Positions 3,874 through 24,517 of a stretch of 64,000 nt of DNA are shown piece by piece. The translations under genes and the position numbers were made by a program. Position 1 is the first letter of the stretch; each line of letters starts with the position of its first letter. The DNA is from Asterias amurensis (Eukaryota; Echinodermata; Asteroidea; Forcipulatida; Asteriidae), in NCBI RefSeq assembly GCF_032118995.1, contig NC_092649.1, positions 28,331,927 through 28,395,926 on the forward strand, written 5' to 3'. The notes under the pieces are model-generated. The model saw nothing but the letters and a program-made list of their open reading frames with translations. It searched no databases and was not told where the DNA came from.

Positions 3874-6029
3874 GTGTGCATTTACTTTAGTAATTGTTGT
3901 ATTTAAATTGATCAAAAAGTTGATTAACTAGAATAACAGATTTCAGTTAGAATTAATTGGTGCATAGAAAAGAAGAAATGATACAAAGAATTTTCTTTTA
4001 TTAAAATAAACCACTCCTTTCTTGATCTTTAAAAGCCTGTAGCAATGTCATTGATTTTATTGCACTTTTCTTTAAAATCGGCGCAAAAGTTAAGTTATTT
4101 TCAAAGGGTATAGTATGTCCACTTAATGGCCGCTGGCGGCCGCCTAGACAATTGTCAGAGTATTACAATTAGTACAAGAAGAAAGCCATTGAAATTTGGC
4201 ATCTGATGGTGCCAAACTTGTTCAAAATGAGCATAGTCTGGGGTCGATTTGACCCGTTTTGTGATTTTCTCTCTGACAAGCTCTTAGCACAAAAATCCAA
4301 TTGGGGAGGCTGTTGACCACGGTTAGGAGCGTCCCCGCTTACTAATCATTTCGGATATGAAGAAGTGTCGAAGCCGCCCTTAAACTTTTGAATTCAGATG
4401 CAGGGATATGCCAGGATGACTTAGGTACAAACTGTATTTCTCTAGCATGTTTAGGTCCAGAGTTATTGAAGAGTTCGGCTCAGATTTATTTCAGAACCAT
4501 TTTTATTTAATTCCCGAATGGTGTCTAGCAATTGAAAGAGGGCGCTATTTACACACACCGTTAAGTAAACTAACCCACAATTGGACCATAGCGGGCGCTA
4601 TTCAATGCCACCGTTAAAACTGTTGTTGGGCGCACATAGGCCGACAGGTGCATGAGTTCAATGCTAATGATATAGGCTAAGTGTAATAGCATGGCAAAAA
4701 TGCTATATATCCAAAAACGCTCAATAAGCCAGTCAAAACAGTCTCGAGGCCTCTTGAAATCGATCAGATATATTTCAGATACGTACAGGCCTGGATACGT
4801 ACACTTCAGATTTCTTTTCTTTTGGTAGGGCCGTTGGGAATTTTTGCTCTTTATAGCCTTGAGAGAATATTTCGGAGGTTTTTTCCCAACCGGCGACTCA
4901 CTGCCAGAGAGCGGTCTGTGGGCATTTCCCCAGTGAACTTGCTGGGTGAAGCACAGTAAAATACTTCTTAGCAGAACAAGTACTATGAACCAATGGAGCT
5001 ACTTGCAGACATTTGCTTAGCAAAACCCTAGAGCAAGGAAAACAATCACGTAGCAGTATTTTCTGCTAAACGGTGGATTTATGAAATTGTGCCCGGGCCA
5101 AATTTCATAGAACTGCCAAGCACAAAATTTGCTTAGCATGAAATTTCTGCCTGGATTAAAAACAGGATTACCAAAAATCCACATAATGCCGTTCAATACA
5201 TGAGCATGGAGGAGGCAAACAATAGCAATGCAACAAATGGAAATTTGGTTGGTATTCCTGATTTTATCATAGTGGAAATTTCATGCTCAGCATATTATTT
5301 TTTGTGCTTATATATAGCAGCTCAGTGGTGCAGATGTTGCTACGCAAATTAAAGGGAAAATGGGCACCTCAGTGAAAGTAAATTTAAACTTTACTGTTTG
5401 TCACACCTATGGTCACCATGGACAAAATTTGCATTCTTGGTCTGAAAACCATTCAAAATTTAGTCTTAATCGTCTCTAGTTTGTCTTCACGAGCACCAAT
5501 AAAAGGAATGAATAATACAAATGCCAATTGTCTCGTTTCTCGCTTGCTTTAAAATCTCCCAGCTTCATGCATGCGGGTAATGGGGTGCGACTCCCCAGGT
5601 ACATTCAATTAGCAAGATGACTCCCCGAATTAGTAACAATTTGTGCTACATTCGTACGTTTGAAATGCAGTTAAATTATAATTCTGTTATTTTTTGACAA
5701 GATGAAATGTACTATCTTCACCTAATATTTTAATTGGTATAAGTTATTTAGTGTAAATATGCTATTTTTTTAAAGTTCAAAATAATCTTGATTACTTTTT
5801 TCGGAATAAGCGAACGTGCCTAGAGAATGATGAATTGTGGTACATTTTACCACGTACATTGGCTACCGGGGTAACTTTTCCCACACCTTAGCGTGGCAAT
5901 TTGTGGCCGTTTTATTCCACCAAAAACACCTTAAAATTTCGTTCTTCTTGAATACTGTTGGCATGGTAACAAGTTTGTACCACATAGAATAACATTTTTG
6001 ATAAAAATCGGTGAAATTTGTCAGCTGTA
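3874..6029. other. Intergenic DNA before SPS1-like gene
   Basis: No gene is seen here. It holds GGGCCCAATTTCAT-family fragments (about 5085-5340), AT-rich stretches and the likely promoter of the downstream gene in its last 200 bases. A stretch at 5826-5842 matches, in degraded form, the Staf/ZNF143-like motif upstream of the second selenophosphate synthetase. Confidence 0.5.
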
Positions 6030-9000
6030 ATGGGGTCTCGACGTTCTCCTTTCGATCCAGTTGCTCATGGGCTGGACAAAGATTTCCAGCTAACCAACTA
6101 CACTTTCACAGATCCGAGAGGAGTTGGGTGGAAGGTCCCTCAAAAAGATCTCCTTAAACTTCTCGATGAGTTTAAGGATGATGGAGGCAAGTCAGCGGAA
6201 GAGATGATGCTGCAAAGAACAGAGTTTGGTGAGTTATTAAGTTTCATGGAGTTGTGAATTATTAACTGATAATGTCTCGAAACTGGGATTATCTAAATCT
6301 AAATTTATACACAAGTTAATATAGGTTTAATGCTGGAAGCTAGGGAGCCATACTGTACCAGGGAAGTCGCATGTCTTCCCCGTTCATCAACATGATCAAC
6401 GCTTGTTTGGATTTTATTTATTGTTATAAGGTCATAATATTGTTGTCTCTTACGTTAAATATTACTACTGCACTGTGGCTGCAAAAAAACAATTTGCATC
6501 AGCTTCATTTTCACAAACAGTAAACAGATATTTTTAGACCATTGCATTTTGTTGAAAAGTTACTAAACACTGAGGCTTTAAATCATACAAAAACACGACA
6601 GTGCATGGATTGAAGACAATTACCCAAGCTAGGCAAGTTTTTGCTGCAGTTTGACTGACCAAGCCTAATAAGTTTGGGCTAATTTGCATATTTATGATTA
6701 ATTTGAATACTTAAAGGAAGTGGGCCAAACTTAATAATTATGGTTTACTATTATAAACGGGAAAACTTGTAATTTATATGTAATAAAAAAATACTTTTAA
6801 ATAAAGGTAAATATTTTCAAAGTTTGTTAAAAAGTGTTAAACTTAAGTAATGTTTTTCAGTAACCAAATTTTAGTTGATTGATTTAATTTTGTTACAGGA
6901 AAAACTTTTCACTAGAATTTACTTTTCAAAATTTCAACCCAACCCACAACTCAAAGTTTTCTTCAGAATATATCCTCCCCTTACCAGTTTTCACGCTATT
7001 ATGCCTTTTTCTTTGAATTGGGAAAAAAATAATGATGCCTTATATCAACCGATGCCCTAATTACCTTCTTTTGTTAATATGAAGTATGCAAACATATATT
7101 AAAACTTGATGGACATTGAAATATTCACACTACACACTGATCTTTGATGACTTCAACTGGCCCCATTTGTTTTTAGTTTTTCCTGTTTTCACAGCAAACA
7201 AGAAAGCATGGTTTCCCGGTGAAGCCATAAATGGAAGAAACATCTACAGTGACTACAAGTGTTCTTTGAGACTCTGTGTATGACTCTATAGCCAGCAGTT
7301 GTCTTCGTTTTATTCAAAATATCTTTTAGTGAAATTTTAAAATTACCATGGTAATTTGTAAAAAATAACAAAAATAAATAATTTAATAAAAAGTGTTAAT
7401 AATCATTGGCTTTCAAATCTGATTTTTATTTATTTTTTCCTCTTTTTTTTCTCTTAAAATTTATAATAAAGTGTATAAATAAACATTGATAATTGAATCA
7501 ACAAGCTGATCGTTTAAATTTTAATATAAATAATAATATTGATCGGAGGGTTAAAAAAAAAACTCAACAAATATTAGAAAATGATATAAGGCACATGGCT
7601 TCTTTAAGCCTCTGTATTTTTTTTCCAGAATGCTCAGCAAAATATTCAGTCACATGATTTGATCATCATGAATTGTGAATTGAAATAGTGTTTGATGAAA
7701 CTTTTTCGGTGGGCAAATATTTTTATATGGCCTCAACATTATGACATATTTTTGTACCTTGTAGAAATGCCTAAAATACCAAACTTTTTGCATTTACAAG
7801 TGCAAATATCCAATGGAGCCTTACATGTTTCTAAGTTTTGGTCAAGGGAGAGGAGACTCTTTGCTTGGCAAATAAAACCACACAATTTTTATCTTGGGAC
7901 TGTTTACATCGCGCACAGAGAGGTAAAAGATTTGCCACGATTTTAGGGACACCTCGAAAACAGGACCTCCTACGATACATGTACTTCTCAATCTCATCGC
8001 ATAGTATTTTTTATAGTTTACATTTATACTACAACCTTCCTCTGGTTTTTGTTTACTATGTAGGAATCGGCAGTGACTGCAGCGTTAAACCTCTCCCACA
8101 TGGCGGACTTTGCCTCGTTGAAACCACCGACTTTTTTTACCCTTTGGTGGATGATCCTTATGTTATGGTGAGATCTAGTTCAAGATTTGTGCCAATATTT
8201 TTATAGAAGAAATTCACAAAAACTTTAACAGGTAGTAACTAGTAGTATAAACTATTGATAATATTAATATAATCCGAGCAAGAATTCCCTTTGAAGTAAT
8301 ATGGTTTTGATTAAAAACATTTTTATCCGAGAAATTATTCTTTCTTAAATTTCTGAGGGTTGGTGTGTATCCCTTCGAGAATGCAGTTGGTAGAGATCTT
8401 TATGGTGATAATCAAAGAAAGGTTAAGTTTAATTGCTTTCTGTACCAACTTATTGTTCCATAATAGGGGCAAATAGCATGTGCTAATGTGCTTAGTGACA
8501 TATACGCCATGGGCGTCCTTGAGTGTGACAACATGTTGATGTTGCTTGGCGTTCCACAGCGATTCAGTGACAAAGAGCGTGAGATCATAATTCCTCTCAT
8601 GATGCGAGGCTTTAGGGTAAGTACTTTTTAAATAAAGTCTTAAAAGTACAGGCCTGATGCTTCATTATTATGCAGGACAGTTTGACTTTGGTAGCTAGGG
8701 CACCTTGATGAGGGAAAGTTACTTTCCCAATTTCAACAATTCATGTGTCACCAAGGCCAAATAACCAGTGGTGAGGGGCATTGAGGAAATGACATTGGCG
8801 TTGAGGCGGACAGGCGGTGACCAGGGGCAATAAGACGATATCGATAACCAAGGGCATAAACAATAACAAGGCCAATGACCTGGGGCATGGAGGCAATGAC
8901 CGAGGACAAAGAAAAAAATAATGTGGGCATGGAGGCAATGATCAAGGGCATGAAGGCAACCTTGGGCATTAAGGCAAAGACCATGGGCATGGTGACCTTA

Positions 9001-12000
9001 GAGGGCATTTAGGCATTGACATGGGGCATGGAGGCAGTGACCAGGGTTTATTGAGGCAATGACCAGGGAAATCAAGGCAATCAACTGCCTCTGTTGACTC
9101 CGCTACGATAAGAGAAACAACATCATATTTTGAAATCTTACTTTTTTGGTCCGATTCACTTTATGCTTGACTTTACTCATTGCAGGATATGGCAAACATG
9201 GCAGGTACCAAGGTCAGGGGAGGTCAAACAGTTCTCAATCCCTGGTGCACCATCGGGGGAACTGCTACAAGTGTGTGCCCTGGGACTAGTATTGTGTGGT
9301 GAGTTGAATAGTTATCAGCCTATTTTATTTCTAGATATCTTCTTATTCTATATTCTGACCATTATATGTGAGTGTTTGAGATTATAAACCATCCACATTG
9401 TACCCCTATGGAAGAGTGAAATGCTAGACAAAGAATTCAGACAGAAATGTAGAGTAGGGTCGTAGATTGGTTGTGTCAACATAATGCTGGTATATTAATT
9501 ATGCAAATTATCAAGAAACATACATTAAAAGTCACCTGTGAAAGTTTCAGCTGAACTATAAATATGCGTTATCCATACAATAATTATTGTTAAGTTTTAT
9601 AAGACAGTGTCTAGGCCTACTTGTTTAGAAAACAACAAAAAGCTGAAATGGTATTTTCATAAGAACATTGAACCCATCCAAGATTAGCGAGGTGACAGCG
9701 GCTACCAACTGCATCTCTGGCCACAGCGTTTGCCAACGGACAGCAACCCTCAGAAATCTTAGAAATGATTCATGCATGAATCATTTCTCAGACTCGATTG
9801 TTTTTGCGGGAAAATTATCCAAACTTTGAAGTAGGGACGAGAAACTTTAAGACTTTAATCTGAATTCAGGTTTGTTTATGTCTACCTTGAGAAAAAGTAG
9901 TTGTTTTCTACAGTGATACATGAATCCTGCTTTTTTATCACTTTCTCCAGTGCTGAGGATAATGTTCCCAAAAGCTCCTTGAAATCTACCAAAAGTTGGA
10001 AATGCCGTCATTTCAATAGACATCAAATTTTAACCCCAGTTTCAGACCTTTTTGTCTGTAATGACACCCCAACTTAAGTTTGAATGGAATCCTGTCTCAA
10101 AAGAGTTAATAATACCAACAGCTGCAGTGCTTCTTACCTACTAAGTTGTTATGGCTATTAGTTTTTCAGAGAATTTAACAATCTATTACCCTACCTATAA
10201 ACTTCAAAGCTGCTTGTTACATAAGTTGCCTTCACCTGCGATTCATTTTATTCCCAAGTCTTACTCTTTGGAGTTCTTCTCATCTACAGTCCTGACAATG
10301 CTTTGGTTGGGGATGTGCTCGTACTGACCAAACCTCTGGGTACCCAGATCGCAATCACTGCCCGGCAATGGCTGTCAATCCCGGAGAAGAAGAAGAAATT
10401 GAATGCTCTCATAACAGCTGAAGATGTGGAGAGGGCCTACCAGGAGGCTGTATATAACATGTGTAAACTCAACAAAATATGTAAGTGATCCTTGTTATCA
10501 AATACTTTTACTCGTTGTTGATATTTGGCATGTCATGGCCAAGCGGTCTAGGTCACTGGACTCGAGTTTTGGCGGCTAATTCATCGGGGTGGGGGTTCAA
10601 AGCTTTTCTTCAACCTCTTAAATTTGTATTCGGGATTGCATAGTTGTGATTTATTTTGCTTGGTGCACTACATACTTGGCAGCACAGACTTTGGTAGGAA
10701 GTTGAGATGGTCTGAGGAATGAAGTAAATGGCTCAGTGACTAGAGTAATGCTGTTAAACATGTTAGATGCGCCAATTCCCAGCGCTATATAAAATCGATA
10801 CTGAATTGCCGGTTACAGCTATTGCTTCAACTGTTGCTAAAAGGATGTCCTGCTGTCGATTTCACAAAACTCTTCCTAACTTAGGATTAATCTTATAAAT
10901 GACTTAGGCGAGTCCCAACCCTGCACTCTAGCATGCAGACCTTAAGATTAATCCTAAGTTAGGACAAGTTAATCGTCCTAACTCGAGATAAGACGAGTCC
11001 TAACTATTTGTGAAATCGGCGGCTGGACTTAATCGCACGATGCACAGTATTATAATTTTATGAAGAAATCCTGTCACGGATTGATTAACTTTTGGCTCTA
11101 CAATGAAAATTTGACATTTGTAAACAACTCTCAAGCTCAATTTCACATTCAATATTAATTGGTTACTTTTATGTTTATTTGTTTACTATTAAGCACGGGA
11201 ATGAGAACTTATATGTTTTGAACAAACTCTTTGTTTCGTTGTTGCTTACCTTGCAGCCGCTAGCCTAATGGCCACATACAACGCCCATGGTGCCACGGAC
11301 ATCACAGGTTTCGGTATTCTCGGCCATGCCGAGAACCTTGCCAAGTGCCAGAAAGAAGAAGTCAGTTTTGCCATCCATAACCTTCCCGTCATTGCCAGAA
11401 TGCAGCATATCGCCAAAGGGTACAGTGAATTTAAATTGCTACAGGGTTACTCCCCTGAAACTTCAGGTACGTGATTTTCAACGTAGTTAATTCGTCACCA
11501 CTTTCACAAAAAGCCACACCATGTCAAAAGTTGTGGTTTAGATTTGCATTTTACACTGTGCTTAGTATGCGGACTCGGATTTATGAATACCACGTCCAAT
11601 TGAAAGCTTCTTGTAATGACATATTGTCACTATTTTATGAAGAGCCACTATTTACATTTTACACTATACTTTGCTTAAACCTGCAAATGTGCTTGTATGG
11701 TTTCAAGAAGAAAATCAGTGGTTTAACAACTCAACATTTTGATCAGTTTGCTCTGATCAACAATCTCCTGAAGTCAACCAGAGCATACTGATTGAAACGT
11801 TGAGTTGTTAAACCATTTGTTCTCCTCAGAACCACCACAGTTCATGAGAGTTTTGTCACCGTGTCTGCACAAACCTCACTTGACCATAGCCTTAAGGTGT
11901 GTTTCAATCCGATGATTCTGTGAATTCAGGTTTGTTTGCGCCCTCGGATTATTTTGACAGAAGCCAACATTGCCATCACAGTGAAAAAAGACTAGACCCA

Positions 12001-12447
12001 TACTGATGACGTAGTCTTCATATCTCTTTGAAGTAATGTAGAGAGTCTATCAACCTGTAAAGTGTTACATCCTGAGCTCAGAGCTGCCAACTCTACCTGA
12101 CTCTGCAGAAAGTTCCCTGAAAATAAACCAATATTTGATTATGAAAACCTTTTCCCTAATGTTGAATGTAATTCTTGGTATCTCCTTTATTGTTGTACAA
12201 AATCAAGAGGAACCAATAATATCCAATTTTTTTTTTTTTTAACTTCCAAACAATCACACCTCTTCTAATTTTGTCCACAGGAGGACTTCTCATCGCGTTT
12301 CCAAGAGAACAAGCAGCCAGTTACTGCAAGGAAATGGACAGACTCGGAGCCAGCGCTTGGATCATCGGTATCGTGGAAAAAGGGAACCGCACAGCTCGCG
12401 TCATTGATAAACCCCGTGTCATTGAGGTCAACACGAACATCACATAA
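6030..12447 (+). CDS. Selenophosphate synthetase paralogue, non-Sec (SPS1-like, Val/Trp)
   Basis: Seven coding exons: 6030-6228, 8064-8167, 8467-8616, 9186-9298, 10290-10480, 11257-11466 and 12281-12447. All borders are GT/AG and all phases join, giving 377 residues plus TAA. The start is the first in-frame ATG ([10 protein letters not shown]). Family motifs include [67 protein letters not shown] and [20 protein letters not shown]. The family makes selenophosphate from selenide and ATP. The active-site loop reads RGVGWKVPQ: Val32 sits where SPS2 has Sec (or Cys in bacteria), Trp34 replaces the next conserved Cys, and Lys35 is kept. It probably cannot do the selenide reaction as SPS2 does, so an SPS1-like role is inferred. 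It lies 4.2 kb upstream of its UGA-containing twin in the same orientation. The frame is intact, so it does not look like a pseudogene. Confidence 0.93.
8650..9090 (-). repeat. Repeat A, inverted copy with short tandem expansion
   Basis: The segment starts with CAGGCCTGATGCTTCATTAT and contains a run of imperfect units of about 20 bp built on GAGGCAATGACCAGGGGCAT (about 8770-9080). The same words appear, complemented, in repeat A copies at 29224 and 51844. It lies in intron 3 of the SPS1-like gene. Confidence 0.5.
9454..10194. mobile_element. DNA element with GTAGGGT ends, long copy
   Basis: The left end GTAGGGTCGTAGATT and the right end (complement GTAGGGTAATAGATT) are inverted repeats. The left 290 bp match the shorter element at 26235-26514, and a third partial copy lies near 45683-45855. 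A perfect 28-bp palindrome sits at 9761-9788. It lies in intron 4 of the SPS1-like gene. Confidence 0.5.
10528..10800 (+). mobile_element. tRNA-headed SINE
   Basis: It starts with the tRNA-like head ATGTCATGGCCAAGCGGTCT, has a weakened B box near 10590, and ends with CAGCGCTATATAAAATCGAT, the usual tail of this SINE family. It lies in intron 5 of the SPS1-like gene, sense orientation. Confidence 0.55.
10852..11030. mobile_element. Foldback MITE, GATTTCAC-ended family
   Basis: The left end GTCGATTTCACAAAACTC and the right end (complement GCCGATTTCACAAATAG) are inverted, with paired interior blocks around TTAGGATTAATCTTA and TAAGATTAATCCTAA. It is the same family as 14-186 and resembles the hairpin at 27664-27786. 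Confidence 0.6.
11715..11815. repeat. Stem-loop repeat with GAAAC core
   Basis: The outer arms GGTTTAACAACTCAAC and GTTGAGTTGTTAAACC pair perfectly over 16 bp. The inside holds TGATCAG-type short stems and GAAAC just before the right arm. A related structure is at 42490-42560. It may be the remnant of a retroelement end or a hammerhead-like fold; this is not established. Confidence 0.4.
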
Positions 12448-14889
12448 GTCTCACAACTTTTTTTATCCTGTCTATAGGACGTGCTCATCATTCAGAAACA
12501 CCGGACTTATAAATTGCTTTAAGTTATATCTCGCTTTCACTCTTTGTAACTATTCCACTACACAAAGTTTATCTTTATTGCTGCTTGATACTTATGTGTA
12601 GATTCCAAGTAACAATTCTGTGAGATGGTTTTACTCAACTACAAGTAAATGAAACATTCGGGGTCAGAATTCAGACTTTTTGAGGGAAGATTTTTACTTT
12701 TAAGACATGTATCATGGCCAGGTTGCTGATAGATTTGAAACTGTTTAGAGGAGAGTAGTTAAGACTTTTTGTGTGGTATTGCCCATCTACGTAGAGTTGA
12801 ACTTTCTCAAAAGTCTGTTGAAAGCTATAGGTCTGAAAAGTCCAAGAAACATTGTTTTATGTTTTTATGAAACAAATCTGTTTGAAGCAAATACATATGA
12901 AGCTTTGAATTTGAAGGAGGGCATTGTATCAGGGAATGGTTTCATTGCTCTGCTTACCGCGAAATTCTGCGCTTACAGCCCTGTTAAGCACACACTTCCA
13001 TGGGACGTAAGTGCAGAATTCCGTAGTAAGCAAAGAGAGCCTCAAAATTAGGCCCCTGTTGTCCTGATCTGGACTGCAGCAGCGATGATACCTTCCTCTG
13101 AAAAATTCCTACAGATCTCCCCCGCCAATCCACCCTTTTTTCATGGAGTTATTGTTCCCTCTTCTGGAGAATGTTCTTGGTCCAAAGCACTTGATATATG
13201 CAAAAGCCACAGGCCATTCAGATTCTGTTTAAGTCTTGCCTCTCAAAATATGCAACGCACAAGGCAAATCGGTAGACCTATGATAGACCTATGATATTCA
13301 AAGTTCAATCCATGATGAAACATGAATTACGACTTTGCCCTATTTTTATTAGCCAGTAATGGTTTACGAGATGACAAATAAACATGTGAAATTTTGTAAT
13401 CAGTAACAAGTAATCGTTTGGAGAATTTTTTTGTTTTCAAGGTCATCGCCAAAGTATGACCCTGCCTTTGAGTGCTTAAGTGCTAAACAAAGCATGTCAC
13501 AATTTAATTAACTACCCTGGCAATGCTGATCTTAAGATTAATTTGAAATCGAGCCCACTGTTCATTTTAATACGCAATCAGTTATTTCTTTGTATTCATA
13601 TTCATCAAGAACTATGTGTAACTATGTTAAAATTATGATCATTTTAACTCTGTATAAAATTTGATCCTCGGGGCCAGGAATTTCATTTTTGAGCGGGCAA
13701 GGCCATTTACATCTTCCAATGGGCATTTACATTGGAAAATCTTAAAGTTCTTGGGAAACTGATAAGGGGGCACCGGCAGTCAAGTTTGATGATGAGCTGG
13801 GAATTTCTTGGTTCGCAACTTTCAATGACATGGAGACTACGTCCAACTCACAAATTTGTCCAAAAACTTTGATTACAAAGAAGAAATGAAAGACATAAAG
13901 CCTCAAAACAGGTGCCGATGATGGCTGTAGATACTTCAGCATTCAGATACAATCAGCATAAGGTTTTGTGAATTTATCAGAAAATGTGTTTTGAGGGCCC
14001 AATTTCATGGAGCTACTTAGCGGCCGATTTTCTATTCGTAGGCACACAAAACGGCATGCACAAAAATTAATTACGTCACAATGCAAATCCATGGTGAACC
14101 CGCAATATGACCCCCTGATTTTTCTTCTAACCTGTGAAATACACTTGCACCTTAGCAATTTTTTCTGCTACAATAAGCATGAAAATTGGCGTACCGTTAA
14201 GCAGCGCTATGAAATTGGACACAGGTTAACAGTAGTAATGTAGGCACCCACTGATGAGTTATCTACAAAAACAAGTTTATTTTCTTATTTTTACAGACAC
14301 AACAAATATTCAGTGCCATTTCGCCAAGAATTCCCATCTGCATGATGCTGTTATTATTGCATGAAATGCTTGTCATTTTAACTTTTATATTCACAACTTT
14401 GCTATTTCTGTACAGTTAATATTTTACTTGGCAAACAGGTTTTGTGTCCACTTTTTTACTTTTTTTCCCTTAGGTATTTTGCAGGTATTTTAAGTGTCAA
14501 ATCATCATGCGCTAAATTAAGAAATGTTTAGATGCAATTCCATCAGTCATTAGTTGTCAAGTGTATTCTACATTAAAGTTGTTTAAAGAATTATTCATGA
14601 ATTGAAACTTGGGTTAAAGAGTGCTTTCATTTTAGCTGTAGAAAAAAATGTTCAGGTTTTGCAACCAAAGTATTATAATGTCACTTTTTGTAAACTCAAG
14701 TAAAAATACAACTTTCATTCAACTTTCAGTATTGCCAACTAGTGCTGCTCTGAATTTGTATAAAGATTTTTAATGTCAACAAATTTTACTTGATTTATTT
14801 CCAATTTATTTCCTCACAGTTTCTGTGATTACTGATGAGTCAAGTAATTGACATTTGAATGAGTATTTGAGCTCCTGTCCTCATGGTGT

Positions 14890-15375
14890 ATTCTCCAATT
14901 TTCTATTAGTATTCTTCTCTTGAGTTCCAAGTATCCTCTTGAATATTTTCATATCTTGAGTATCCTCTGTGAGTATTCTTGAGTATCCTCTTTGATCTGC
15001 TATAATGTCTGTGAGTATTCTTCTATCTTCTGAGTATTCTCCTATCCTCTGAGTATTGTCTTATGAGAATACTCAAAGGATAGGAGAATACTCAAAGGAT
15101 AGGAGAATACTCAAAGGATAGGAGAATACTCAAAGGATAGGAGAATACTCAAAGGATAGGAGAATACTCAAAGGATAGGAGAATACTCAAAGGATAGGAG
15201 AATATTTAAAGGATAGGAGAATACTCAAAGGATAGGAGAATACTCAAAGGATAGGAGAATATTTAAAGGATAGGAGAATACTCAAAGGATAGGAGAATAC
15301 TCAAAGGATAGGAGAATACTCAAAGGATAGGAGAATACTCAAAGGATGAATACTCATGCGATAGCAGAATACTAA
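14890..15375. repeat. 19-bp minisatellite with an inverted flank
   Basis: From about 15063 to 15350 a 19-bp unit, GGATAGGAGAATACTCAAA, is repeated about 15 times with a few ATATTTAAA variants. The preceding 130 bases carry the complement in looser form (GAGTATTCTCCTATCCTCTG), so the array can fold back on its left flank. Confidence 0.85.
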
Positions 15376-15684
15376 GATCATTTTCTCCCCGAGCATTCTC
15401 CTTTCCTCAAAAGATGTTCGTTCTTCCTGGAGTAGATTTTCTTGTCCTGAGGTATGGTTCTCCGCACCTCCATGAATTTTCTTCAGCCACCCAACATCCA
15501 GTTTAGTTCTTTTGAAAAAAATTCGAAGAGTTTAGGCTTTTCATATTTCTTGTCCATGTTTTTAGGGTAAGTTCATGCATTTCAAATAAAACTAAATAGC
15601 TAATTTAAAAATTAAAAATTGTGCATTTCTTGAAATCTCTTGTCCATTAGAGATTATGAAAAAATGGTCTTGTTTACTCAAATT

Positions 15685-15990
15685 TGATATTGCTTTTTGT
15701 GGCAGTTTGGTACGGAACAATTTTTGTTTGTCCCGCAGGTGCCCCCCCCCCCCCCGAACCGTTGCCCTCACGCCTGTCCCTTCCCCCTTTCCTCATTGCT
15801 TTTTGTGGCAGTTTGGTACGAAACAATTTTTGTTTGTCCTGCAGGTGCCCCCCCCCCCGAACCGTTGCCCTCACACCTGTCCCTTCCCCCATTTCCCTTC
15901 CCCCTTTCCTCATGGTTAAGCAAATTACACAAAAAATGGTTCAGTTCAGCCCCCGCCCCCCCCCCCCCCCCCCCGCCCAAGAAAAGGCTG
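15685..15990. repeat. C-rich tandem duplication of about 120 bp
   Basis: GGCAGTTTGGTACG, then AACAATTTTTGTTTGTCC, a run of Cs and GAACCGTTGCCCTCAC occur twice in tandem (about 15700-15800 and 15806-15905). A longer C tract follows near 15955-15975. The open frames across it are proline-rich artefacts of the C runs. Confidence 0.75.
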
Positions 15991-16494
15991 ACTATTACTT
16001 CCCCCAGTAGCGCAACTTTATTCCCCAATGGCCTTGTTAATGCATGGCACCGCCCCTTTAACTTGTTTCATTCATCTTGTTTTCTACCAATAGTGCTATC
16101 AATCATTTGCGACAGATTGTGTGGGCTCACTCAATAAACATCCGTGACAATGTTGGGTAAAAATGTCTTCAATAATGTAACCCCGCCCCCTTTTATTATA
16201 CTATTTTCCATGAGGGGGTTCTGCATCATTTACCTCACACCCAGGGTAAAGCTCTTCAGCTGCCAGTAATTAGTACGTCGACTCCCTAAAACAGTAACAA
16301 TTTATTCATTTAAATGTTTCTCAAACTTTTAGACAAATTAAAACGTAATGTTTTGCATCAAATATTATCAAAACGTTTTTTAAATTAATATATCATATTG
16401 ATTTGGACTAATGTGAATGTAACTTGCCCGCAAAGTGTATTAAAATTAGTCAAAATAAGCCATTAATTTATTTCCTTAAGTGAAAGAGCCTTTA

Positions 16495-16514
16495 GGATGA
16501 TGCATTGTGGGGGA
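16495..16514 (-). promoter_or_regulatory. Staf/ZNF143-like site upstream of SPS2
   Basis: On the minus strand, CCCCCACAATGCATCATC matches about 15 of 18 positions of the Staf/ZNF143 consensus (YWCCCRNMATSCMYYRCR, from memory). It lies about 165 bases before the ATG. Staf is the activator first found on the selenocysteine tRNA gene. The SPS1-like gene has a similar but degraded word at 5826-5842, about 190 bases before its ATG. Confidence 0.4.
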
Positions 16515-16675
16515 GGTTAGCAGACGGTTCACACTTCGTGCACGATATGTCGTGCTCGAGCTCCACACACACAACACAACTCAGAAAGCACCTCACAATT
16601 TAGACTAATTGTTCAATTAAAAAACGAGAATAAAGTGTACAGAGTAAGTAAAAAGGTAAGATAAAACTGTCCGCG

Positions 16676-16892
16676 ATGGCTACTCCATTGCAACAGCCTT
16701 TTGATCCCGAAGCTCACGGGTTGGACAAAGATTTCCGTCTGACCAAATTCACCGAGTTGAAAGGGTGAGGTTGTAAAGTTCCTCAGAAGGATTTGCTCAA
16801 ACTTCTGGAGGAACTACATGTGAATGAAACCGTGAACCCCGGAGACGGGACCGGTGGTGCTGATGGGACACAAGTTGAAGACTTTTTAATGC

Positions 16893-16928
<36 letters not shown>

Positions 16929-19900
16929 CGTCTGCAACACAACCCCAGTTTGGTAAGTTAATTTCTGCCTAATCTGCTTTGATTTGAGTTTGATTTGACT
17001 GATTTAATTAAGCACACACACACAAATCTTTAAATTAACTGTTTCAAATTAATAAATAACAAGTAAGCGGTCGCACTAAATATCGACAACTCACAACCCC
17101 TCACGACAACTCACGACAACAATTTTTAAATGCACTTTAACAGAACATTTGAACATAAGTCGACCGTTAAATATGTGCACAAGAGTCATATGCATCTAAA
17201 TCATCTTCAAACTGTTGAAAAAATTGTATTTTTAACTGTACAAAATGTGTTTTTTACCCTTAATTTAGTAATGAAGGGAAATTTTCGCCATGTTGTCGTT
17301 CGACGTACTTGGACGATGCAGGGGGCAGGGGAAATTTCTGAGGGCTGAGTTGTATTTTTTTCTTTTTGGTTTTAGCTGCTGTTTTTTCTTTCTTGTTAGT
17401 AACTAAAGGCCCGGTCCCACTGCAGCGATAACGAGAACGATAACGATAATGACCCCAAGAGAACGCATTCTATTGGTTGAATGAGCGTGTGCATATTCTG
17501 CGTGGAGCAATTCAACCAATAGAACGCATTCTCTTTGCGTCGTGATTGTTATCGTTCTCGTTATCGCTGCAGTGGGACCAGGCCTTAAGCCACCACTCTG
17601 GAATTCGAAGTTAAAAGGGGAGGTTTAAATATAATATTTTTAAAACTCCATGAGAGGCACATAAAATGGTAAATAATCATCTTGCATATTGCATCACCCC
17701 TGCGGTTTAATGGAATCGTCCAAGTACGTCGAAAGACAACTTGGCGGATATTTCCGTTTGTTACTATATTCGGGGTAAAAAACACTTTTTTTCACAGTAA
17801 AAAATACATTTTTTTCAACAGTTTGAAGGTGATTTGGGTGCATACGACTCTTGTGCATATATTTAACGGTCGACTTATGTTCAAATGTTCTGTTAAAGTG
17901 CATTTAAAAATTGTTGTCATGAGTTGTCGTGAGGGGTCGTGAGTTGTCGGTATTTAGTGCGACCCCAAGTAAGGGATGTAATTTAATAGTTTTTATAGAT
18001 TTGTTGTTTATTTACAACTGTAACCTTATGCCAATTTTGACCACCAAACTGTGTTTGCACCGTATTGATTTGCACATGTAACTATGTAATTTGTGCAATT
18101 TATTTCACACAGGGCTCTCCACAACACAAGGTTTATTTGTTGTCCGGTGCAAACCAATCGTGCAGAATTGGCATTGATCCATGAATGTCAATTCTGCATG
18201 ATTGTCAAATTGACTGGCCAGTCAATTTTTTTTTACATCAAACCTTGCCTGATTTAAGGAAATGTATTTCTTGATCTGTTGAGACCTTATATAGCCTTTA
18301 GGATTAAAACTATATTTTGTTTTTTTTTGTCCTTGTGTATTTGTGATTTAGTGACAGTATTAACAGATCCATATTAACTAATGTACATTATCTTTATTCA
18401 GGTATCGGAAATGACTGTTGTGTCACACCTCTTCGTCATGGCGGATACTGCCTTGTTGAAACCACAGACTTTTTCTATCCACTCGTTGATGACCCATATG
18501 TTATGGTATGATTATAATTTTCCATGGAGATGGGCCTTTCATCTTTTTTATTTCCACTTCAATGTCATCTTGGACCAAAGTAAACGATAGTTGGTCGAAC
18601 TCTTGTCAAGCTTTTATAACATGATTTTTGGGGTTGAACAAAGAATTGACTAGAGTGAGTGGGATTCGAACCAACGACCTCCGGATTAACGTGCCGGCGC
18701 TCGTTAATATGTATGAACTCATTCAAGCCTTGCCATTTTCATGGCTTCTTGTTTGCACTTAAACTTAAGTGCGCATGCACTAAATGTAGGTGCATCACAA
18801 ATCAACCACTTATTAGTTGGTCCTTAATCAAACTTGCTCATAGTCTGAAAGCTCTTACTTAGGCTCACTATCTTCAGTAGTACTAGTATTCCTAGGCTGA
18901 TAGAGAAAATACAGATGCATAAATTAGATTTTTAAATTGTTTATTTTTCTGTCTTTTTGTTTCCTTCTTGGCTTTGCTTTATGGTTGCTTTGTGGTCACT
19001 GCTACTTGATAATAACATGTTATTTTTGTGTAATGTTTAAATTCCAGGGCCAGATAGCCTGTGCCAATGTGTTGAGTGACTTGTACGCCATGGGTGTTGT
19101 GGACTGTGACAATATGCTGATGCTGTTGGGAATACCGCAAAAGTTCACCGACAAAGAAAGGGATGCAGTCGTGCCTCTGATGATCCGCGGATTCCGGGTA
19201 AGATGGGACGGAAAGAGAACATGTTTGTAGAATGTGATTGAGCAGATAAGACCAGACTCAAGCTCTGGTGTTTCAGCTAAACAGAGTGTGGGTTCGAGCT
19301 AGGCCAAATTTCATAAGCAAATTTTTGTGCTTACTGTAGCAGAAAAATGTGCGTTAAACATATTTCACCATGATTTCTAGGCGTGATTGCACGATCACCA
19401 TGGATTTGCATTATGATGTTTTAAAATTACTTGTGTGCTTACTGTGGGTTAGCCAGCATTTACCCTTGCTTACACTAAACAGCTTTATGAAATAGAAATT
19501 CTTCTAAGGGGCGCTCCGTAAGCACAAAATGGCTACTTACATGAAATTGGGCCCTGGTCGTGACACTTTTGTTAACCTGTTGACCGTTAAATGCTGTGTT
19601 CTGTGGACGTTTTTAGGTACTCACAGAACTGGCTCAAATCTCTTCTTTGCTCTCAAATAATTTTAGACTCAAGGCTGACAATCCTTTGGAACTATTTTAG
19701 TTGGTACTGGTTTAATTGAATAATTAAGTAAACTTTCTGTTTAAAATTAAGTAATTTTTATGATGAAACAAAGACTTACAAGCTATTTATTGTACCTTTG
19801 AATTTCAGGATAATGCTTTACTGGGTAAAACGAAGGTCAGAGGAGGTCAAACGGTCATCAATCCCTGGTGTACAATTGGAGGAGTTGCCTCAAGTGTGTG

Positions 19901-22900
19901 CTTAGCCAGCGACATCACGTGGTAAGTTCTACTCAGTTGAAACACCTGGGCCTGTTGCGCTGCTTTAAACACAGCAAAATTATGCTTACCAGAAGAGGGT
20001 TTCCAGCCATGTGTGTCAGGTACACATCTGTTGGTGGTATACGTACTGCTCATTTTTGCTTAGCAGAAAATATTTAAGGCAGTATTTTAAATACAAGTGT
20101 TTGTATACCAAGTATCAGGATATCTGAGAACTGAGTCCACCAGCCGAGTACCAACGACTTGGATCTCAAAATTTGAGTTACAAGTGCTTTGTTAAGTATT
20201 ACTGCAAAATGAGGTGTTGGCACATTTATTGTTGTTTTTGACAATAATGTGCTAATTATAATTATTGTGAAGGATTTGTGATCTGCAATTTACTGATTTG
20301 ATTTGTTATTTTAATATGCTACTATTATGATTATTTAACCTCAGGCAACTAACTACTTGTTGTATGTTTTTATTTTGTGTACACTGGTAAAACCAAACTG
20401 TATATTTTAATCTTATACAAGGCCTGACTGGGTTTGTGTGTGGATTTTATTCTTAAATCTTTGTGTAATGTGTGTTGTGCAATATTTGTAACTTTTGTAA
20501 CTTCCTGTATTTGGTGGTGCTGTTTAAACTTGTGCGAGCAATGTATTTTCTTCTTTTTGGAGTGTAAACTAAGTTTATATAAACTGTTTTAGTCCCAATG
20601 TAAGGTTTGCATTACTTCCATCTACATGTACCAGACAATCAATTTGAAATTGTATATCAGTCTGAGTCATGACTTATAGTGATGAATCAAGTTATTACTT
20701 CCTCCTCTCCCGTCAACAAACAAACTAGGAGTAATTGTCAAAAGCAAATAAAGGGAAAACTAAAAACGGGAATGTAAAGACACTAAGAGTTTAAAACAGA
20801 GAAAATCTAGTGAACTATCTACATCTACTTACAAATCGTTGATAAATTTTTTGCATCTCTTGTCAGCCCGGACAATGCTGTGGTCGGTGATGTCTTAGTC
20901 CTCACCAAGCCCCTTGGAACTCAAGTGGCAGTCAATGCCTACCAGTGGCTGTCAAGCCCTGAGCAATGGAAGAGAATCAGCGCGGTGGTTACAAAGGAAG
21001 ATGTAGAGAGAGGTTACCAAGAGGCCAAATATTACATGTCCAAACTCAACAGAGTGGGTAAGAACAATTCATTTTTTTTTTACATTCTGTGTAACTGTGA
21101 GCCGAAGTGCGCCCTCAGTGTTCAATTTGTAAATTCATAGTGAAAGGTTAACTTTGGGTTCATCACCTATAGAATCATTCTTTTTTTCTATTATAACTTC
21201 ATGCATAAATAGAGCACCGTATCTTTGGTCGGTAATTCTATGTATTTTGTAGGGACAAAAATCACTTTATCTAGAGGTAAGTTCATTGATCTATCTGTGA
21301 ATTTTGTTTTATTTTTAAAGCTCATTGTTCCCAAGTTATTGTGATTTGTAGGGCTCTATTTGGATCGTATAATTTGTAAACATAGTATATTGCCAGTCAG
21401 TCTTGTGTGTGCATGTAGTCACACAGCCTCGTGTATGCTGATCTTTTGTGACCTTTGACTGTGCATTATTATTGTTACTATTTGTATATTGTGTGGTATG
21501 GGTTTCAAATATTAAAACCTGTAGGAGAGATTATTTTATAATTTAGACATCATTGGCTTTTGACTTTATTTTGGCTAATGCTCGACCTTTTTAATTAGAG
21601 GACCGGCTTCCCTCCAGTGTCTCTACATTTATAACTAAGAGAGGTTTTTCATTCTGTGTACAATTCTGTGTAATATCTTTGTATAATTACATCCTGTGTA
21701 ATATATTTGTACATGTACACGTATTGTCTCGTATAATTTTTTCTATTTTTATATTAATGAATTTATAATTGCTGGCCACCTTTGAAAATCATTGTTTAAA
21801 TGAAAGAAGTCCCCATAATCATCAATAAATATATAAATATAATTGAGCTGCTTCACCCAATAATGATAGACCCTTTCTCGTTTGTCCAGCTGCTAGCTTA
21901 ATGTCTCAGTATGGAGCTCATGGTGCTACCGACGTGACGGGTTTCGGTATTCTCGGCCATGCCGAGAACCTAGCCAAGATCCAACAGAACGAGGTGAACT
22001 TTGCCATCCACAACCTGCCAATTATCGCCAAGATGCAATACATCTCCAAGGGATGCAGTGGAATGTTTAAACTCCTCCAGGGTTACTCTGCTGAAACCTC
22101 AGGTGAGTTGGCAATTTCAAGGGTTTCATAGACCACAAAAAGAGAAACTCTAAGCCAGGCCTCAAAATAACCCATGGTACATTTTGCTTTTGCTGTGGTT
22201 CTCCTGCAAGGTTCCATTACAAACTTACAATTTCCCCATAGAAGTGCCCCTTTAAGAGCAAAGTTCGAGGGCTGTGAGCAGTCAGTCGGTTTGGTGTAGT
22301 GGTATCTTTCCCGCCTTCCACCTCTGACCCTGGTTCGAATCCAGCTGGGAGCACTATGTGGGTTTTTAGTCTCTACCTGGGCCCAATTTTGTGGCTCTAC
22401 TTACTGCTGAATTCTGTGTTTGCGATTACCATTCTTTGCTTACAGGGAAAGCGCCAAATTTCAGCGCTAGCTGTGTAAGAAAAGGATGCCTCGTATTAAA
22501 CAGGGACTGCGCAGGTGCACTAGCACAAGTTCCCTGCTGAACTGTTAAACATGCTCAAATTCCCTGCTTCCATAAGTGCAGATTCTTTGCCTGATTGCAT
22601 AGATTTTCCCTGGAGTAACTCGCAAGGGTTTAAAAAAATTCCTTCCTTGTTTTCTCACCATTGGGTTCGTTGGCTAGTATTGATTAAATTTGCTTTTTTG
22701 AAAATCTTTTGCTTGACAACCAGAACTTTGAAATGAAAGAATTCAACTGAAATTCCAGAATGTTTTCTGGCAGGCAAGATCGTACTGTGTTTATAATTGA
22801 AGTTTTATGGTTTGTACTTTTAAAATGAAGTAGCTGAACAAACTACAAGATGTTTCTCATTTCATATGAAAGGGTGATAACAATTGTATACTGTATTGCC

Positions 22901-24517
22901 AAATATAAGATTTTATGTTTCCTTCTGTTTGATATGTTTAGATTTTGTACCCGTGGCTCTTTTGTAATCATGAATGCGATGGCATGAGTCAAACATTGTT
23001 TGATGACTGTATTGCTAATTTTGTTATGAACAACATTACCATTTTCAATTAGAAAAACGTTCATTTAAAGCCATTGGACCCTTCCGGTACAGAAAAACCA
23101 AAAAGTTCACAGATTTACAAATAACTTACAGGGTTTACAGAAGGTAGTGGTGAAATACTTCTCTTGAAATATTATTTCATGAAATGCTTTACTTTTTGAG
23201 AAAACAGTAAAACAATATCAATTCTCGTTAACGAGAATTACGGATTTAGTTTAAACACATGTCATGACACGGCGAAACGCGCGGATACAAGGGTGGTTTT
23301 CCCGTTATTTTCTCCCGACTCCGATGACCGATTAAGCCCAAATTTTCACAGGTTTGTTATTTGATATAGAAGTTTTGATACACGAAGTGTGGGCCTTGGA
23401 CAATACTGTTTACCGAAAGGGTCCAATGGCTTTAACCCTGCCCACAATGTATATTCGTTAACATATTCCACTAAAACCATTCAACTGTAGGGTTGTGTAT
23501 GGTGGAACAGCTGTGCACATAATTATATTGCAGACTCATTGTTTGTCATTTTAAACCATTTTTGATATGATATTGAATGGTCAGACCGTAGGCTCGGTTG
23601 ACTGTGTACTATCTAGATTCATTCACCATGTGATGTCTTGTTGCAGACTTACATTGTTGTCTATCATTTACAACCATTTTTTGTTGTCGATAAAATTGAA
23701 TAGTCAGATACATCCTACATCTAGTAGGAGAGTTGACCGTGTATTATGTATTATTCATATTATGTTTCATATTGCAGGCTGGCATTGTTTATCCATCATT
23801 CACAACCGTTTTGTGGATGTTATTGAATGGACAGAGACTAGGAATGTTTACTTCTTACATTATTGATATGTTTACAATATATTATATTGGAGGTAGGCAT
23901 AGTGTATCTTTCAATTAAAACCACACTTAAAAACTATATTTAACGGTAAGACAGTAGGAGGGTTGAATTGTGCATTTAATGTCATTTAAGTGTTTTTTTT
24001 TAGACCAACAACCTGGAGGGTTGGAAACATTTTTACTGTAAAACTCTTGAGTTTACTGAAATAGGTAGTCAAAGTGTGAAATCCAAAGCTAATCAAAAAG
24101 AAATACATGTAGGCCTAATTATTTAATAGATGTTAAAATAAATTGGATTTGAATTGTCTCTAGCTACCGGGCAAATCTTGGTGGTCTAGTGGTAAGACAT
24201 CTGCTCTGGAATGGCAAAGGTTGTGGATCCAAATCCCACCCGAGTAATATGCCTGTGGATAAAATACAGAGTAAACAGTGCTTTACACTGTGTATGGGTA
24301 AAACCAAATAATATTTGCCTAATTATGTTGTTGTTTATTTGTGTCGATAGGTGGGCTTCTGATAGCATTCCCCAGAGAGCAGGCAGCGAGTTACTGTCGT
24401 GAGATGGAGAAACAAGGCAACACGGCATGGATCATAGGCATCGTGGAGAATGGTAACCGTACGGCACGCGTCATCGAGAAGCCACGCGTCATTGAGGTGA
24501 CTACTCATATACCATAG
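16676..24517 (+). CDS. SEPHS2: Selenophosphate synthetase 2 with in-frame UGA (Sec)
   Basis: Seven coding exons: 16676-16952, 18402-18505, 19048-19197, 19809-19921, 20867-21057, 21890-22102 and 24351-24517. Phases are identical to the upstream paralogue. With UGA read through, the product has 404 residues. Exon 1 starts [20 protein letters not shown] and reaches KG-UGA-GCKVPQ, with the UGA (16766-16768) as codon 31, exactly the catalytic Sec/Cys position of SelD/SPS2. The following Cys33 and Lys34 are kept. Later motifs include [74 protein letters not shown] and [13 protein letters not shown]. The enzyme uses ATP and selenide to make the selenium donor for Sec-tRNA. An unusual insert with 12 Gln follows the N-terminal loop. 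Conventional gene callers would stop at the UGA or start downstream. I could not find a clear SECIS by eye, so an SPS1-UGA type read-through gene remains possible. Confidence 0.93.
16766..16768 (+). other. In-frame UGA, probable selenocysteine codon
   Basis: The codons run AAA GGG TGA GGT TGT AAA GTT, giving K-G-U-G-C-K-V. This is the conserved G-(U/C)-G-C-K catalytic loop of selenophosphate synthetases. The frame stays open and homologous on both sides, so this is recoding rather than a stop. The upstream paralogue has GTT at the aligned codon (6123-6125). Confidence 0.9.
16777..16815 (+). promoter_or_regulatory. Stem-loop 8 nt after UGA (candidate Sec redefinition element)
   Basis: AGTTCCTC pairs with GAGGAACT and the adjoining AGAAG pairs with CTTCT, with one bulged G. 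This gives a 13-bp stem and a 12-nt loop inside the coding sequence. Spacing after the UGA is 8 nt, close to that of known Sec redefinition elements. In the paralogue the corresponding bases no longer pair well. Confidence 0.7.
16892..16927 (+). repeat. (CAA)12 tract coding polyglutamine in SPS2
   Basis: Twelve pure CAA codons lie between MQ and SSATQPQF at the end of exon 1, in the linker between the N-terminal loop and the ATP-binding domain. The paralogue has a short acidic linker here instead. The pure repeat suggests length polymorphism. Confidence 0.95.
17068..17965. mobile_element. Foldback DNA element with long inverted arms, 8-bp TSD
   Basis: The inverted arms are about 280 bp: GGTCGCACTAAATA on the left, its complement TATTTAGTGCGACC on the right. 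They include CATTTGAACATAAGTCGACC-type blocks in both. The 8-bp word CAAGTAAG flanks both sides exactly (17060-17067 and 17966-17973), as expected for hAT-like insertion. It lies in intron 1 of SPS2 and is split by a second element at 17407-17585. The small open frames in the arms are mirror copies, not genes. Confidence 0.85.
17407..17585. mobile_element. Nested MITE, PIF/Harbinger-like (TAA target)
   Basis: The inverted repeats are AGGCCCGGTCCCACTGCAGC on the left and, complemented on the right, AGGCCTGGTCCCACTGCAGC, continuing through GATAACGAGAACGATAAC. TAA flanks both ends (17404-17406, 17586-17588), the 3-bp target typical of PIF/Harbinger. It inserted into the larger foldback element after that had landed. 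Confidence 0.8.
18560..18720 (-). mobile_element. tRNA-headed SINE, antisense
   Basis: GTGGGATTCGAACC at 18659-18672 is a complemented tRNA B box, followed by sequence like a complemented anticodon arm. The left part, with TTGGGGTTGAACAAAG, is SINE body. It lies in intron 2 of SPS2. Confidence 0.5.
19300..19560. repeat. GGGCCCAATTTCAT-family repeat
   Basis: The left end is GGCCAAATTTCATAAGC and the right end ATGAAATTGGGCCC, inverted, with GCTTACTGT/AAGCAC motifs inside. It lies in intron 3 of SPS2. Confidence 0.5.
22270..22560 (+). mobile_element. tRNA-headed SINE followed by GGGCCC-family repeat
   Basis: GGTGTAGTGGTATCTTTCCC and the B box GGTTCGAATCC (about 22332) form a tRNA-like head. 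CAGCTGGGAGCACTATGTGG and a TCTCTACCTGGGCCC join follow. From about 22378 the GGGCCCAATTTTGTGGCTCT repeat begins. It lies in intron 6 of SPS2. Confidence 0.6.
23069..23431. mobile_element. TTAA-flanked MITE, copy 1
   Basis: The inverted ends are AGCCATTGGACCCTT and AAGGGTCCAATGGCT, flanked by TTAA on both sides (23065-23068, 23432-23435). A TTAA target is typical of piggyBac-like elements. An inverted second copy of nearly the same length lies at 27994-28357. The interior holds GTTAACGAGAATTACGG and GACACGGCGAAACGCGCG. Confidence 0.75.
23470..23980. repeat. Degenerate tandem repeat of about 120-170 bp units
   Basis: Units contain TTGAATGGTCAGACCGTAGG, a TTGACTGTGTA stretch, CATATTGCAGGCTGGCATTG and ACAACCATTTTTTG in the same order, about four times. 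The same unit appears two or three times at 30795-31045. It lies in intron 6 of SPS2. Each unit holds a TATTGCAG word like a 3' splice site. Confidence 0.6.
24172..24330 (+). mobile_element. tRNA-headed SINE just before SPS2 exon 7
   Basis: The head has TTGGTGGTCTAGTGGTAAGA and a B-box-like GTGGATCCAAATCCCACCC. The body has ACAGTGCTTTACACTGTGTA and the end GGTAAAACCAAATAATAT. It ends about 20 bases before the exon 7 acceptor (exon begins 24351). A related SINE is at 42228-42365. Confidence 0.6.

What the first reader, a model, noticed from the sequence alone, without database searches (positions are those of the whole stretch)
6030..24517. Tandem selenophosphate synthetase pair: UGA copy beside a Val/Trp copy
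Two genes of seven coding exons each, with identical phases, sit head to tail. The downstream copy has UGA at the catalytic position (G-U-G-C-K). The upstream copy has G-V-G-W-K: Val for Sec and Trp for the next Cys, in an otherwise conserved intact enzyme. Known metazoan SPS1 types carry Thr, Arg, Gly, Leu or a read-through UGA at this site (Mariotti and colleagues' work on SPS evolution, from memory). A Val/Trp form that is still physically linked to its SPS2 parent may be an undescribed independent SPS1 birth.
Basis: partly seen in the sequence, partly recalled or inferred. Interest (0 to 1): 0.88.

Follow-up and report, generated by a model that had tools for sequence, protein, structure and literature searches.

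The report
Starfish selenium-enzyme pair, one copy altered
A starfish carries, side by side, a normal selenium-containing selenophosphate synthetase gene and an old, intact sister gene in which both of the residues normally found at the reaction site are replaced; this looks like an extra, starfish-lineage birth of an enzyme relative that probably no longer makes selenophosphate.

Summary
Two seven-exon genes with identical phases (6030-12447, 16676-24517) encode selenophosphate synthetases. The downstream gene is a Sec-SPS2: in-frame TGA at 16766-16768 and a strong SECIS-like hairpin at 27312-27364, not mentioned in the finding. The upstream gene is an intact 377-aa protein with Val/Trp in place of Sec/Cys and no comparable hairpin. 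It is no one-assembly oddity: Patiria miniata has an orthologue (P0001, 76% identical), with Phe/Ala at the same two sites. The tree puts the duplication before the Asterias-Patiria split and separate from vertebrate SPS1. The published survey gave non-vertebrate deuterostomes other than tunicates only one SPS2 (PMC4561486), so this is an additional SPS1-type birth. Two features are unlike described SPS1s. The second Cys, kept in 142 of 143 readable database proteins (the exception is P0001), is lost. The Sec-less copy, not the Sec copy, evolved faster, reversing the published trend. Most likely it is a folded, selected paralogue without selenophosphate activity, with the Sec copy keeping the older roles. 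Function, expression and other starfish are untested.

The parts
6030..12447 (+). Upstream gene, SPS1-type (Val/Trp): exons 6030-6228, 8064-8167, 8467-8616, 9186-9298, 10290-10480, 11257-11466, 12281-12447; 377 aa
   Evidence: TIGR00476 SelD 238.9 bits against a cut-off of 125
6123..6131 (+). Val32-Gly33-Trp34 (GTT GGG TGG), the place of Sec-Gly-Cys; Lys35 is kept
16676..24517 (+). Downstream gene, Sec-SPS2: exons 16676-16952, 18402-18505, 19048-19197, 19809-19921, 20867-21057, 21890-22102, 24351-24517; 404 aa with one in-frame TGA
   Evidence: TIGR00476 241.6 bits with C written at the TGA
16766..16768 (+). TGA codon at the catalytic position, codon 31
27312..27364 (+). SECIS-like hairpin (ATGA ... 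AA in the apical part, extra small stem ... GGAT), taken as the SECIS of the downstream gene
   Evidence: Script scan: inner fold -26.8 kcal/mol, best other hit in the window -10.9, best of 31 hits in six shuffled windows (one strand, single-base shuffles) -12.9; z -3.78, 0 of 200 shuffles as stable. Rfam models did not report it
27506..27511 (+). AATAAA, candidate polyadenylation signal after the SECIS
   Evidence: one of 12 AATAAA/ATTAAA words between 24518 and 28500
24618..24623 (+). AATAAA 100 bases after the SPS2 stop; its use would leave the SECIS out of the mRNA
5777..5840 (+). Block upstream of the SPS1-type gene, alike to 16450-16510
   Evidence: Local alignment score 41, best of 200 shuffles 32; not found by the BLAST
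16450..16510 (+). Matching block upstream of the SPS2 gene

Best explanation
An SPS2 gene was duplicated in tandem, introns and probably promoter region included, in the starfish lineage before the ancestors of Asterias and Patiria parted. The downstream copy stayed a Sec-containing SPS2 and makes selenophosphate. The upstream copy lost Sec, SECIS and the neighbouring Cys, kept the fold, the Lys and the metal/ATP-site Asp residues, and is held by selection as a catalytically dead (for selenophosphate), probably still ATP-binding SPS1-type protein. Because it changed faster than its sister and shares a derived stretch (209-232) with Patiria, I think it took on a specialised role, for example as a partner of SPS2 or in an SPS1-type complex, while the Sec copy kept the general SPS1 job as well. 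Shown: gene structure, replacement of both residues, orthologue, tree, rate asymmetry. Inferred: activity of the Sec copy, loss of synthesis and ATP binding in the other, the specialised role, who keeps the SPS1 job, tandem linkage in Patiria (not seen).
For: Intact models. Patiria orthologue with DFGAK. (up,P0001) support 100/99 and the four starfish proteins 100/98. The grouping (up,down) is rejected, p 1.7e-4, so the two species did not duplicate independently. Human SPS1 D69, D87, D110, D265 and K32 (recalled as the metal/ATP and loop residues) are matched in both starfish upstream-type proteins. Of 115 columns at least 98% conserved in the other rows, 106 (up) and 104 (P0001) are kept. 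The Patiria protein is predicted at mean pLDDT 86, best match human SPS1, TM 0.90. Upstream stem 0.265 (0.176-0.383) against 0.053 (0.002-0.116), longer in 100 of 100 bootstraps. The Sec copy is closer than the Sec-less copy to 133 of 133 other proteins, including all 81 with R, T, L or G at the site. 8 of 21 fixed differences lie in 24 residues (p 0.0006; 0.003 among variable columns). Sec machinery: tRNA-Sec, SepSecS.
Against: No transcript or protein data. Only two starfish species. Selection on the upstream copy rests on an intact frame, 76% identity to Patiria and a pairwise dN/dS that averages both copies at near-saturated dS. The (down,P0002) clade has only 89/73 support. Tajima tests give a higher count for the Sec-less copy in 14 of 14 comparisons but reach p<0.05 in only 5 of 14. 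Faster change can also mean relaxed constraint. Patiria has Asp at human N106, so the active site is drifting. The 133-protein panel is, by the names given, largely arthropod, and many rows are near-identical. The 24-residue stretch was chosen after seeing the differences (the permutation takes the best window).
Confidence: 0.55

Rival explanations
1. Plain SPS1 by subfunctionalisation, as in vertebrates, insects, tunicates and annelids: the upstream copy took over the non-synthetic SPS1 function and the Sec copy specialised in selenophosphate.
For: It fits the definition of SPS1 (non-Sec, non-Cys SPS2 duplicate) and the repeated pattern in PMC4561486; fold and ATP-site residues are kept. The same paper says the differing residues suggest that this position is irrelevant to SPS1 function.
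Against: In the published cases SPS1 stays slow and SPS2 speeds up; here the reverse holds. The second Cys, kept in 142 of 143 readable database proteins, the exception being the Patiria orthologue, is lost in both starfish.
Confidence: 0.28
2. Relaxed, decaying duplicate: dispensable gene on the way to a pseudogene, kept by chance.
For: Accelerated stem; the catalytic loop differs between the two species.
Against: Full-length frames (377 and 376 aa) in both species, all splice borders intact in Asterias (Patiria DNA was not seen); pairwise dN/dS 0.068; 106 and 104 of 115 near-invariant columns kept, about as many as in the Sec copies (107, 106); shared derived stretch 209-232.
Confidence: 0.1
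3. The upstream protein still makes selenophosphate or a like product without Sec/Cys at the loop.
For: Lys and Asp residues kept.
Against: Neither chalcogen residue remains; Cys and Lys of the glycine-rich loop are named as the catalytic residues in PMC7595633 (passages). Animal genomes with only non-Sec, non-Cys SPS have no selenoproteins (PMC4561486).
Confidence: 0.04
4. Assembly or individual artefact at the Val/Trp codons.
For: Only one assembly of this species was seen.
Against: The Patiria orthologue lacks both residues too; GTT needs three changes from TGA; the rest of the gene is diverged all along.
Confidence: 0.02

Closest known systems
Metazoan SPS1 (SEPHS1; SPS1-Thr, -Arg, -Gly, -Leu, -UGA), PMC4561486
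   Same: Duplicate of SPS2 with a residue other than Sec/Cys, no comparable SECIS candidate, same intron phases as its parent, fold and ATP-site residues kept
   Different: Independent origin in starfish; Val or Phe at the site; the next Cys is also lost (Trp or Ala); still next to its parent here; evolves faster than the Sec copy
Tunicate SPS-ae / SPS1-Gly, PMC4561486
   Same: Deuterostome SPS1 that keeps an intron-bearing structure
   Different: That one arose by an alternative first exon and retrotransposition; this one by tandem duplication. No further loop-coding exon was seen in this window
Patiria miniata 'inactive selenide, water dikinase-like protein' (P0001)
   Same: Direct orthologue, 76% identical
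   Different: Phe/Ala instead of Val/Trp; Asp for Gly before the site and for Asn106
Human SEPHS1 in the Zincore complex with QRICH1 (PDB 9hjt)
   Same: Among the best solved relatives, with 3fd5/3fd6; a QRICH1 family match exists in this genome
   Different: No binding of the starfish protein was tested; the Trp aligned to human W221, conserved in 130 of 133 other rows, is Lys in both starfish upstream-type proteins

Membership tests
Selenophosphate synthetase family (SelD/SPS) | Passes the curated SelD model and has the fold | tested here: met
   TIGR00476 238.9 (up), 241.6 (down), cut-off 125; Patiria orthologue predicted to fold like human SPS1, TM 0.90; the window proteins themselves were not folded
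SPS2 | Sec (TGA) or Cys at the catalytic site | tested here: met
   Downstream copy TGA; upstream copy Val, so the upstream copy is not SPS2
SPS2 | SECIS element in the 3' region | tested here: met
   27312-27364 for the downstream copy, by hairpin rules only; a transcript joining it to the gene was not seen and Rfam did not report it
SPS1 (as defined in PMC4561486) | Duplicate of SPS2 with a residue other than Sec or Cys | tested here: met
   Val (Asterias), Phe (Patiria); starfish duplication in the tree
SPS1 | No SECIS | tested here: met
   One hairpin hit between 12448 and 16675, at -2.1 kcal/mol, far weaker than the best shuffled hits
SPS1 | Cys kept two residues after the Sec site (G-x-G-C-K); a common feature in this survey, not part of the published definition | tested here: not met
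   Trp and Ala in the two starfish; Cys in the other 142 of 143 readable database proteins, and in 8 more whose loop the pattern missed
SPS1 | SPS1 copy slower, SPS2 copy faster after duplication (published trend) | tested here: not met
   Reverse; Tajima 5 of 14 below 0.05
SPS1 | Rescues the Drosophila SPS1 mutant, no selenophosphate synthesis | not testable with these tools
   Needs experiments
Vertebrate SPS1 (orthology) | One clade with vertebrate SPS1-Thr | tested here: not met
   AU p 2.9e-5

The most novel reading that the evidence does not exclude
The starfish pair is the first SPS duplication that breaks the rule of slow SPS1 and fast SPS2: the Sec-containing gene kept both ancient jobs (selenophosphate and the Zincore-type SPS1 role), and the Sec-less copy became a new pseudoenzyme whose catalytic loop is free to vary while a new stretch (209-232) is conserved.
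Probability: 0.4. Interest if true: 0.66.

Novelty: new variant of a known kind. Interest (0 to 1): 0.52.

Why it matters
PMC4561486 counts four SPS duplications in animals and sees the same division of labour each time. Starfish would be a fifth, in a group said to have only one gene, and the direction of change is reversed. Since human SPS1 is now placed in a transcription coregulator with QRICH1 (PDB 9hjt title; Bianchi et al. 2025 as cited in PMC13383152), a starfish with one Sec copy that looks like the keeper of the SPS1 role and one odd Sec-less copy gives a natural test of which parts of the protein serve selenium chemistry and which serve gene control.

Tried and rejected
Rfam search for the SECIS gave no SECIS match; a script with SECIS rules found the candidate. 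A stem-loop next to the TGA (recoding element) was weak: z -1.21, 21 of 200 shuffles as stable, so it is not claimed. An alternative first exon, as in Ciona, was sought by loop pattern in all six frames: only the two known loops appear. BLAST of the two gene blocks gave the seven exons and one shared repeat only; the promoter block shows only in a focused alignment. A third protein search on residues 1-125 of the upstream copy, meant to find fragments from other starfish, gave Patiria P0001 at 71% and nothing else above 61% among the best 120. No Acanthaster or Asterias rubens protein was named among the best 120, so other starfish remain unchecked. Trp at the Sec site in 9 database proteins may be TGA read as Trp by a gene caller; not counted as SPS1. 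The 51 proteins without a readable loop were looked at again: 8 have a loop of other spacing or glycine, each with Cys before the Lys; 37 are 360 aa or shorter without the stretch that precedes the loop; the other 6 lack the loop (skipped exon or odd gene model). One row, P0130, shows Ser in that alignment column (93 of 94 Cys) because its N-terminus is unrelated sequence. The 30-row tree uses 30 of 137 proteins (86% identity thinning after 13 hand-kept rows); the AU groups were named after seeing the tree. Searches use the 135 proteins; the 59 new ones entered only the motif counts, and five of them the alignment that was folded. The Zincore paper itself is not held; I saw a passage in PMC13383152, the reference entry in PMC13310916 and the PDB title.

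Full report
What is there. The window lies at C2:28331927-28395926 of an assembly of 491,506,623 bases in 23 contigs. Size and contig number fit the published Asterias amurensis genome (491.53 Mb, 22 chromosomes; passages of PMC10625585); the name is inferred, not given. Two genes of seven coding exons with GT-AG borders and the same phases lie head to tail, 6030-12447 and 16676-24517. Both pass the curated SelD model TIGR00476 (238.9 and 241.6 bits, cut-off 125). They are 72.5% identical over 375 aligned residues. The genome search with the downstream protein scored 14 candidates and all 14 fall in this pair; an earlier AIRS_C domain search listed three other places, on C14 and C4, that were not followed.

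The downstream gene is a Sec-SPS2. Its codon 31 is TGA (16766-16768) in LKG-U-GCKVPQ. A scan with SECIS rules over both strands of the window gave nine hits; the hit at 27312-27364 folds at -26.8 kcal/mol inside the quartet, the next best at -10.9, and the best of 31 hits in six shuffled windows (one strand each, single-base shuffles) at -12.9. With flanks it folds at z -3.78, 0 of 200 shuffles as stable. It lies 2.8 kb after the stop codon, with AATAAA at 27506. The longest open frame between (25480-25992, 170 aa) has no Pfam match; shorter frames were not searched. Rfam's models did not report the hairpin. The genome has tRNA-Sec (14 matches listed, four over the cut-off, two of these near 78 bits) and SepSecS, so Sec insertion is plausible. 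That this hairpin serves this gene is inference from position.

The upstream gene is intact but altered at the reaction loop. It reads [10 protein letters not shown]: Val32 for Sec, Trp34 for Cys, Lys35 kept, two extra residues before the loop, and Pro where 93 of 94 aligned other rows have Leu. The one hairpin hit between the two genes is weak (-2.1). The residues of human SPS1 that I recall as metal/ATP and loop residues (D69, D87, D110, D265, and K32) are matched in the alignment to 3fd5/9hjt.

It is shared with another starfish. The best database match is a Patiria miniata protein that NCBI names 'inactive selenide, water dikinase-like' (P0001, 376 aa, 76% identity). Its loop is LKDFGAK: Phe for Sec, Ala for Cys, Asp for the Gly before; it also has Asp at human N106. 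Patiria has an SPS2 as well (P0002, with C, which the tools write for U). Whether the two Patiria genes are neighbours was not seen. Of 194 proteins returned show a readable loop; 142 have Cys at the second place and only P0001 does not. Of the 51 unreadable ones, 8 have a loop with other spacing or glycine and keep the Cys, and 43 show no loop, 37 of them being 360 aa or shorter without the preceding stretch. Many of the proteins are near-identical arthropod ones, so this is not 142 independent cases.

Tree. With 30 of 137 rows, upstream copy and P0001 group at 100/99, the four starfish proteins at 100/98, and two unnamed proteins, P0059 and P0064, stand next (six rows 100/99). The pair of Sec copies has only 89/73. 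AU tests reject independent duplication in the two species (up with down: p 1.7e-4), common origin with vertebrate SPS1 (p 2.9e-5), and a duplication older than the P0059 lineage (p 0.008 and 0.004). The groups were chosen after seeing the tree. The organism of P0059 is unknown, so 'starfish lineage' means after that lineage left and before Asterias and Patiria parted. PMC4561486 states that all non-vertebrate deuterostomes except tunicates encode only one SPS2 and lists four duplications; it also expects further ones to be found. Its main text does not name echinoderms, sea urchin, starfish or Saccoglossus; its supplements were not seen.

Rates. In the published duplications SPS2 speeds up and SPS1 stays slow. 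Here the stem of the Sec-less pair is 0.265 substitutions per site (95% 0.176-0.383) against 0.053 (0.002-0.116) for the Sec pair, longer in 100 of 100 bootstraps on the fixed tree; whole paths from the duplication are longer too, by 0.166 in Asterias (100 of 100) and 0.193 in Patiria (98 of 100). Tajima counts are higher for the Sec-less copy in 14 of 14 comparisons, but p<0.05 in only 5 of 14. The Sec copies are closer than the Sec-less copies to 133 of 133 other proteins, including 81 of 81 with Arg, Thr, Leu or Gly at the site. So if either starfish gene resembles other animals' SPS1, it is the Sec copy. The tips after the species split do not show the difference (0.15 and 0.38 against 0.19 and 0.40): the burst sits on the stem.

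Selection or decay. The frame is full-length in both species and the splice sites are intact in Asterias; pairwise dN/dS of the two window genes is 0.068, though dS (2.79) is near saturation and the value averages both copies. Of 115 columns at least 98% conserved elsewhere, the Sec-less copies keep 106 and 104, the Sec copies 107 and 106. Of 372 columns, twenty-one are fixed differently between the two pairs; at 10 the outgroup majority agrees with the Sec pair, at 2 with the Sec-less pair, at 9 with neither. Eight of the 21 fall within residues 209-232 ([10 protein letters not shown] in place of [10 protein letters not shown]), including a Trp, conserved in 130 of 133 other rows, turned to Lys; p 0.0006 by random placing and 0.003 among variable columns. 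Shared, conserved novelty of this sort is not what plain decay gives.

Function. The Patiria orthologue is predicted at pLDDT 86 and matches human SPS1 at TM 0.90. In the model the loop region (residues 29-32) has pLDDT under 50, so nothing is said about loop shape. PMC7595633 names the Cys and Lys of this loop as catalytic (passages). I therefore infer no selenophosphate synthesis. The PDB list held an unexpected lead: entry 9hjt, 'Zincore (SEPHS1:QRICH1) binding to ZFP91 on DNA', cited as Bianchi et al., Science 2025, in PMC13383152 (passage); the paper itself is not held. The starfish genome has a QRICH1 family match (C14:19802494-19802805, E 2.3e-28, best of five). If Zincore is the ancient SPS1 job, the Sec copy is the better candidate to keep it here, and the Sec-less copy may be something else. 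This is a proposal, not a result.

Print status. Searches (listings of the best papers only) showed no paper on an echinoderm SPS1; PMC4561486 was read in its Results and the first part of the Discussion. The library lacks most subscription papers.

Noticed in passing
window 24618 and 27506: AATAAA words lie before and after the SECIS; use of the first would give an SPS2 mRNA without SECIS, a possible switch.
   Followed up: no
window 16892-16927: Pure (CAA)12 run in SPS2 exon 1, coding 12 Gln; may vary in length between individuals.
   Followed up: no
window 27660-27788 (-): Long inverted repeat matching MIR3440 at 86 bits (below its cut-off of 105), looks like a small inverted-repeat transposon just after the SECIS.
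   Followed up: no
window 24175-24247 (+): tRNA-like match (35.4 bits) inside the last intron of SPS2, perhaps a tRNA-derived short repeat.
   Followed up: no
window 9617-9720 and 10142-10194 against 26322-26514: A dispersed repeat shared by an intron of the upstream gene and the 3' region of SPS2 (75-76% identity).
   Followed up: no
window 15065-15347 and 42736-43900: Tandem arrays: 19-base unit x 15 between the two genes, 30-base unit x 38 further on.
   Followed up: no
window 33625-34437 (-): Open frame with DUF1751 (75.7 bits), a membrane protein family.
   Followed up: partly
G000 C1:28873558-28873643 and C4:12721785-12721870: Two strong tRNA-Sec matches in one animal genome, plus a set of weaker ones.
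   Followed up: no
database proteins P0003, P0024, P0160, P0163, P0165, P0171, P0174, P0176, P0189: Trp at the Sec site; may be TGA read as Trp by gene callers, or an SPS1-Trp; DNA not seen.
   Followed up: no
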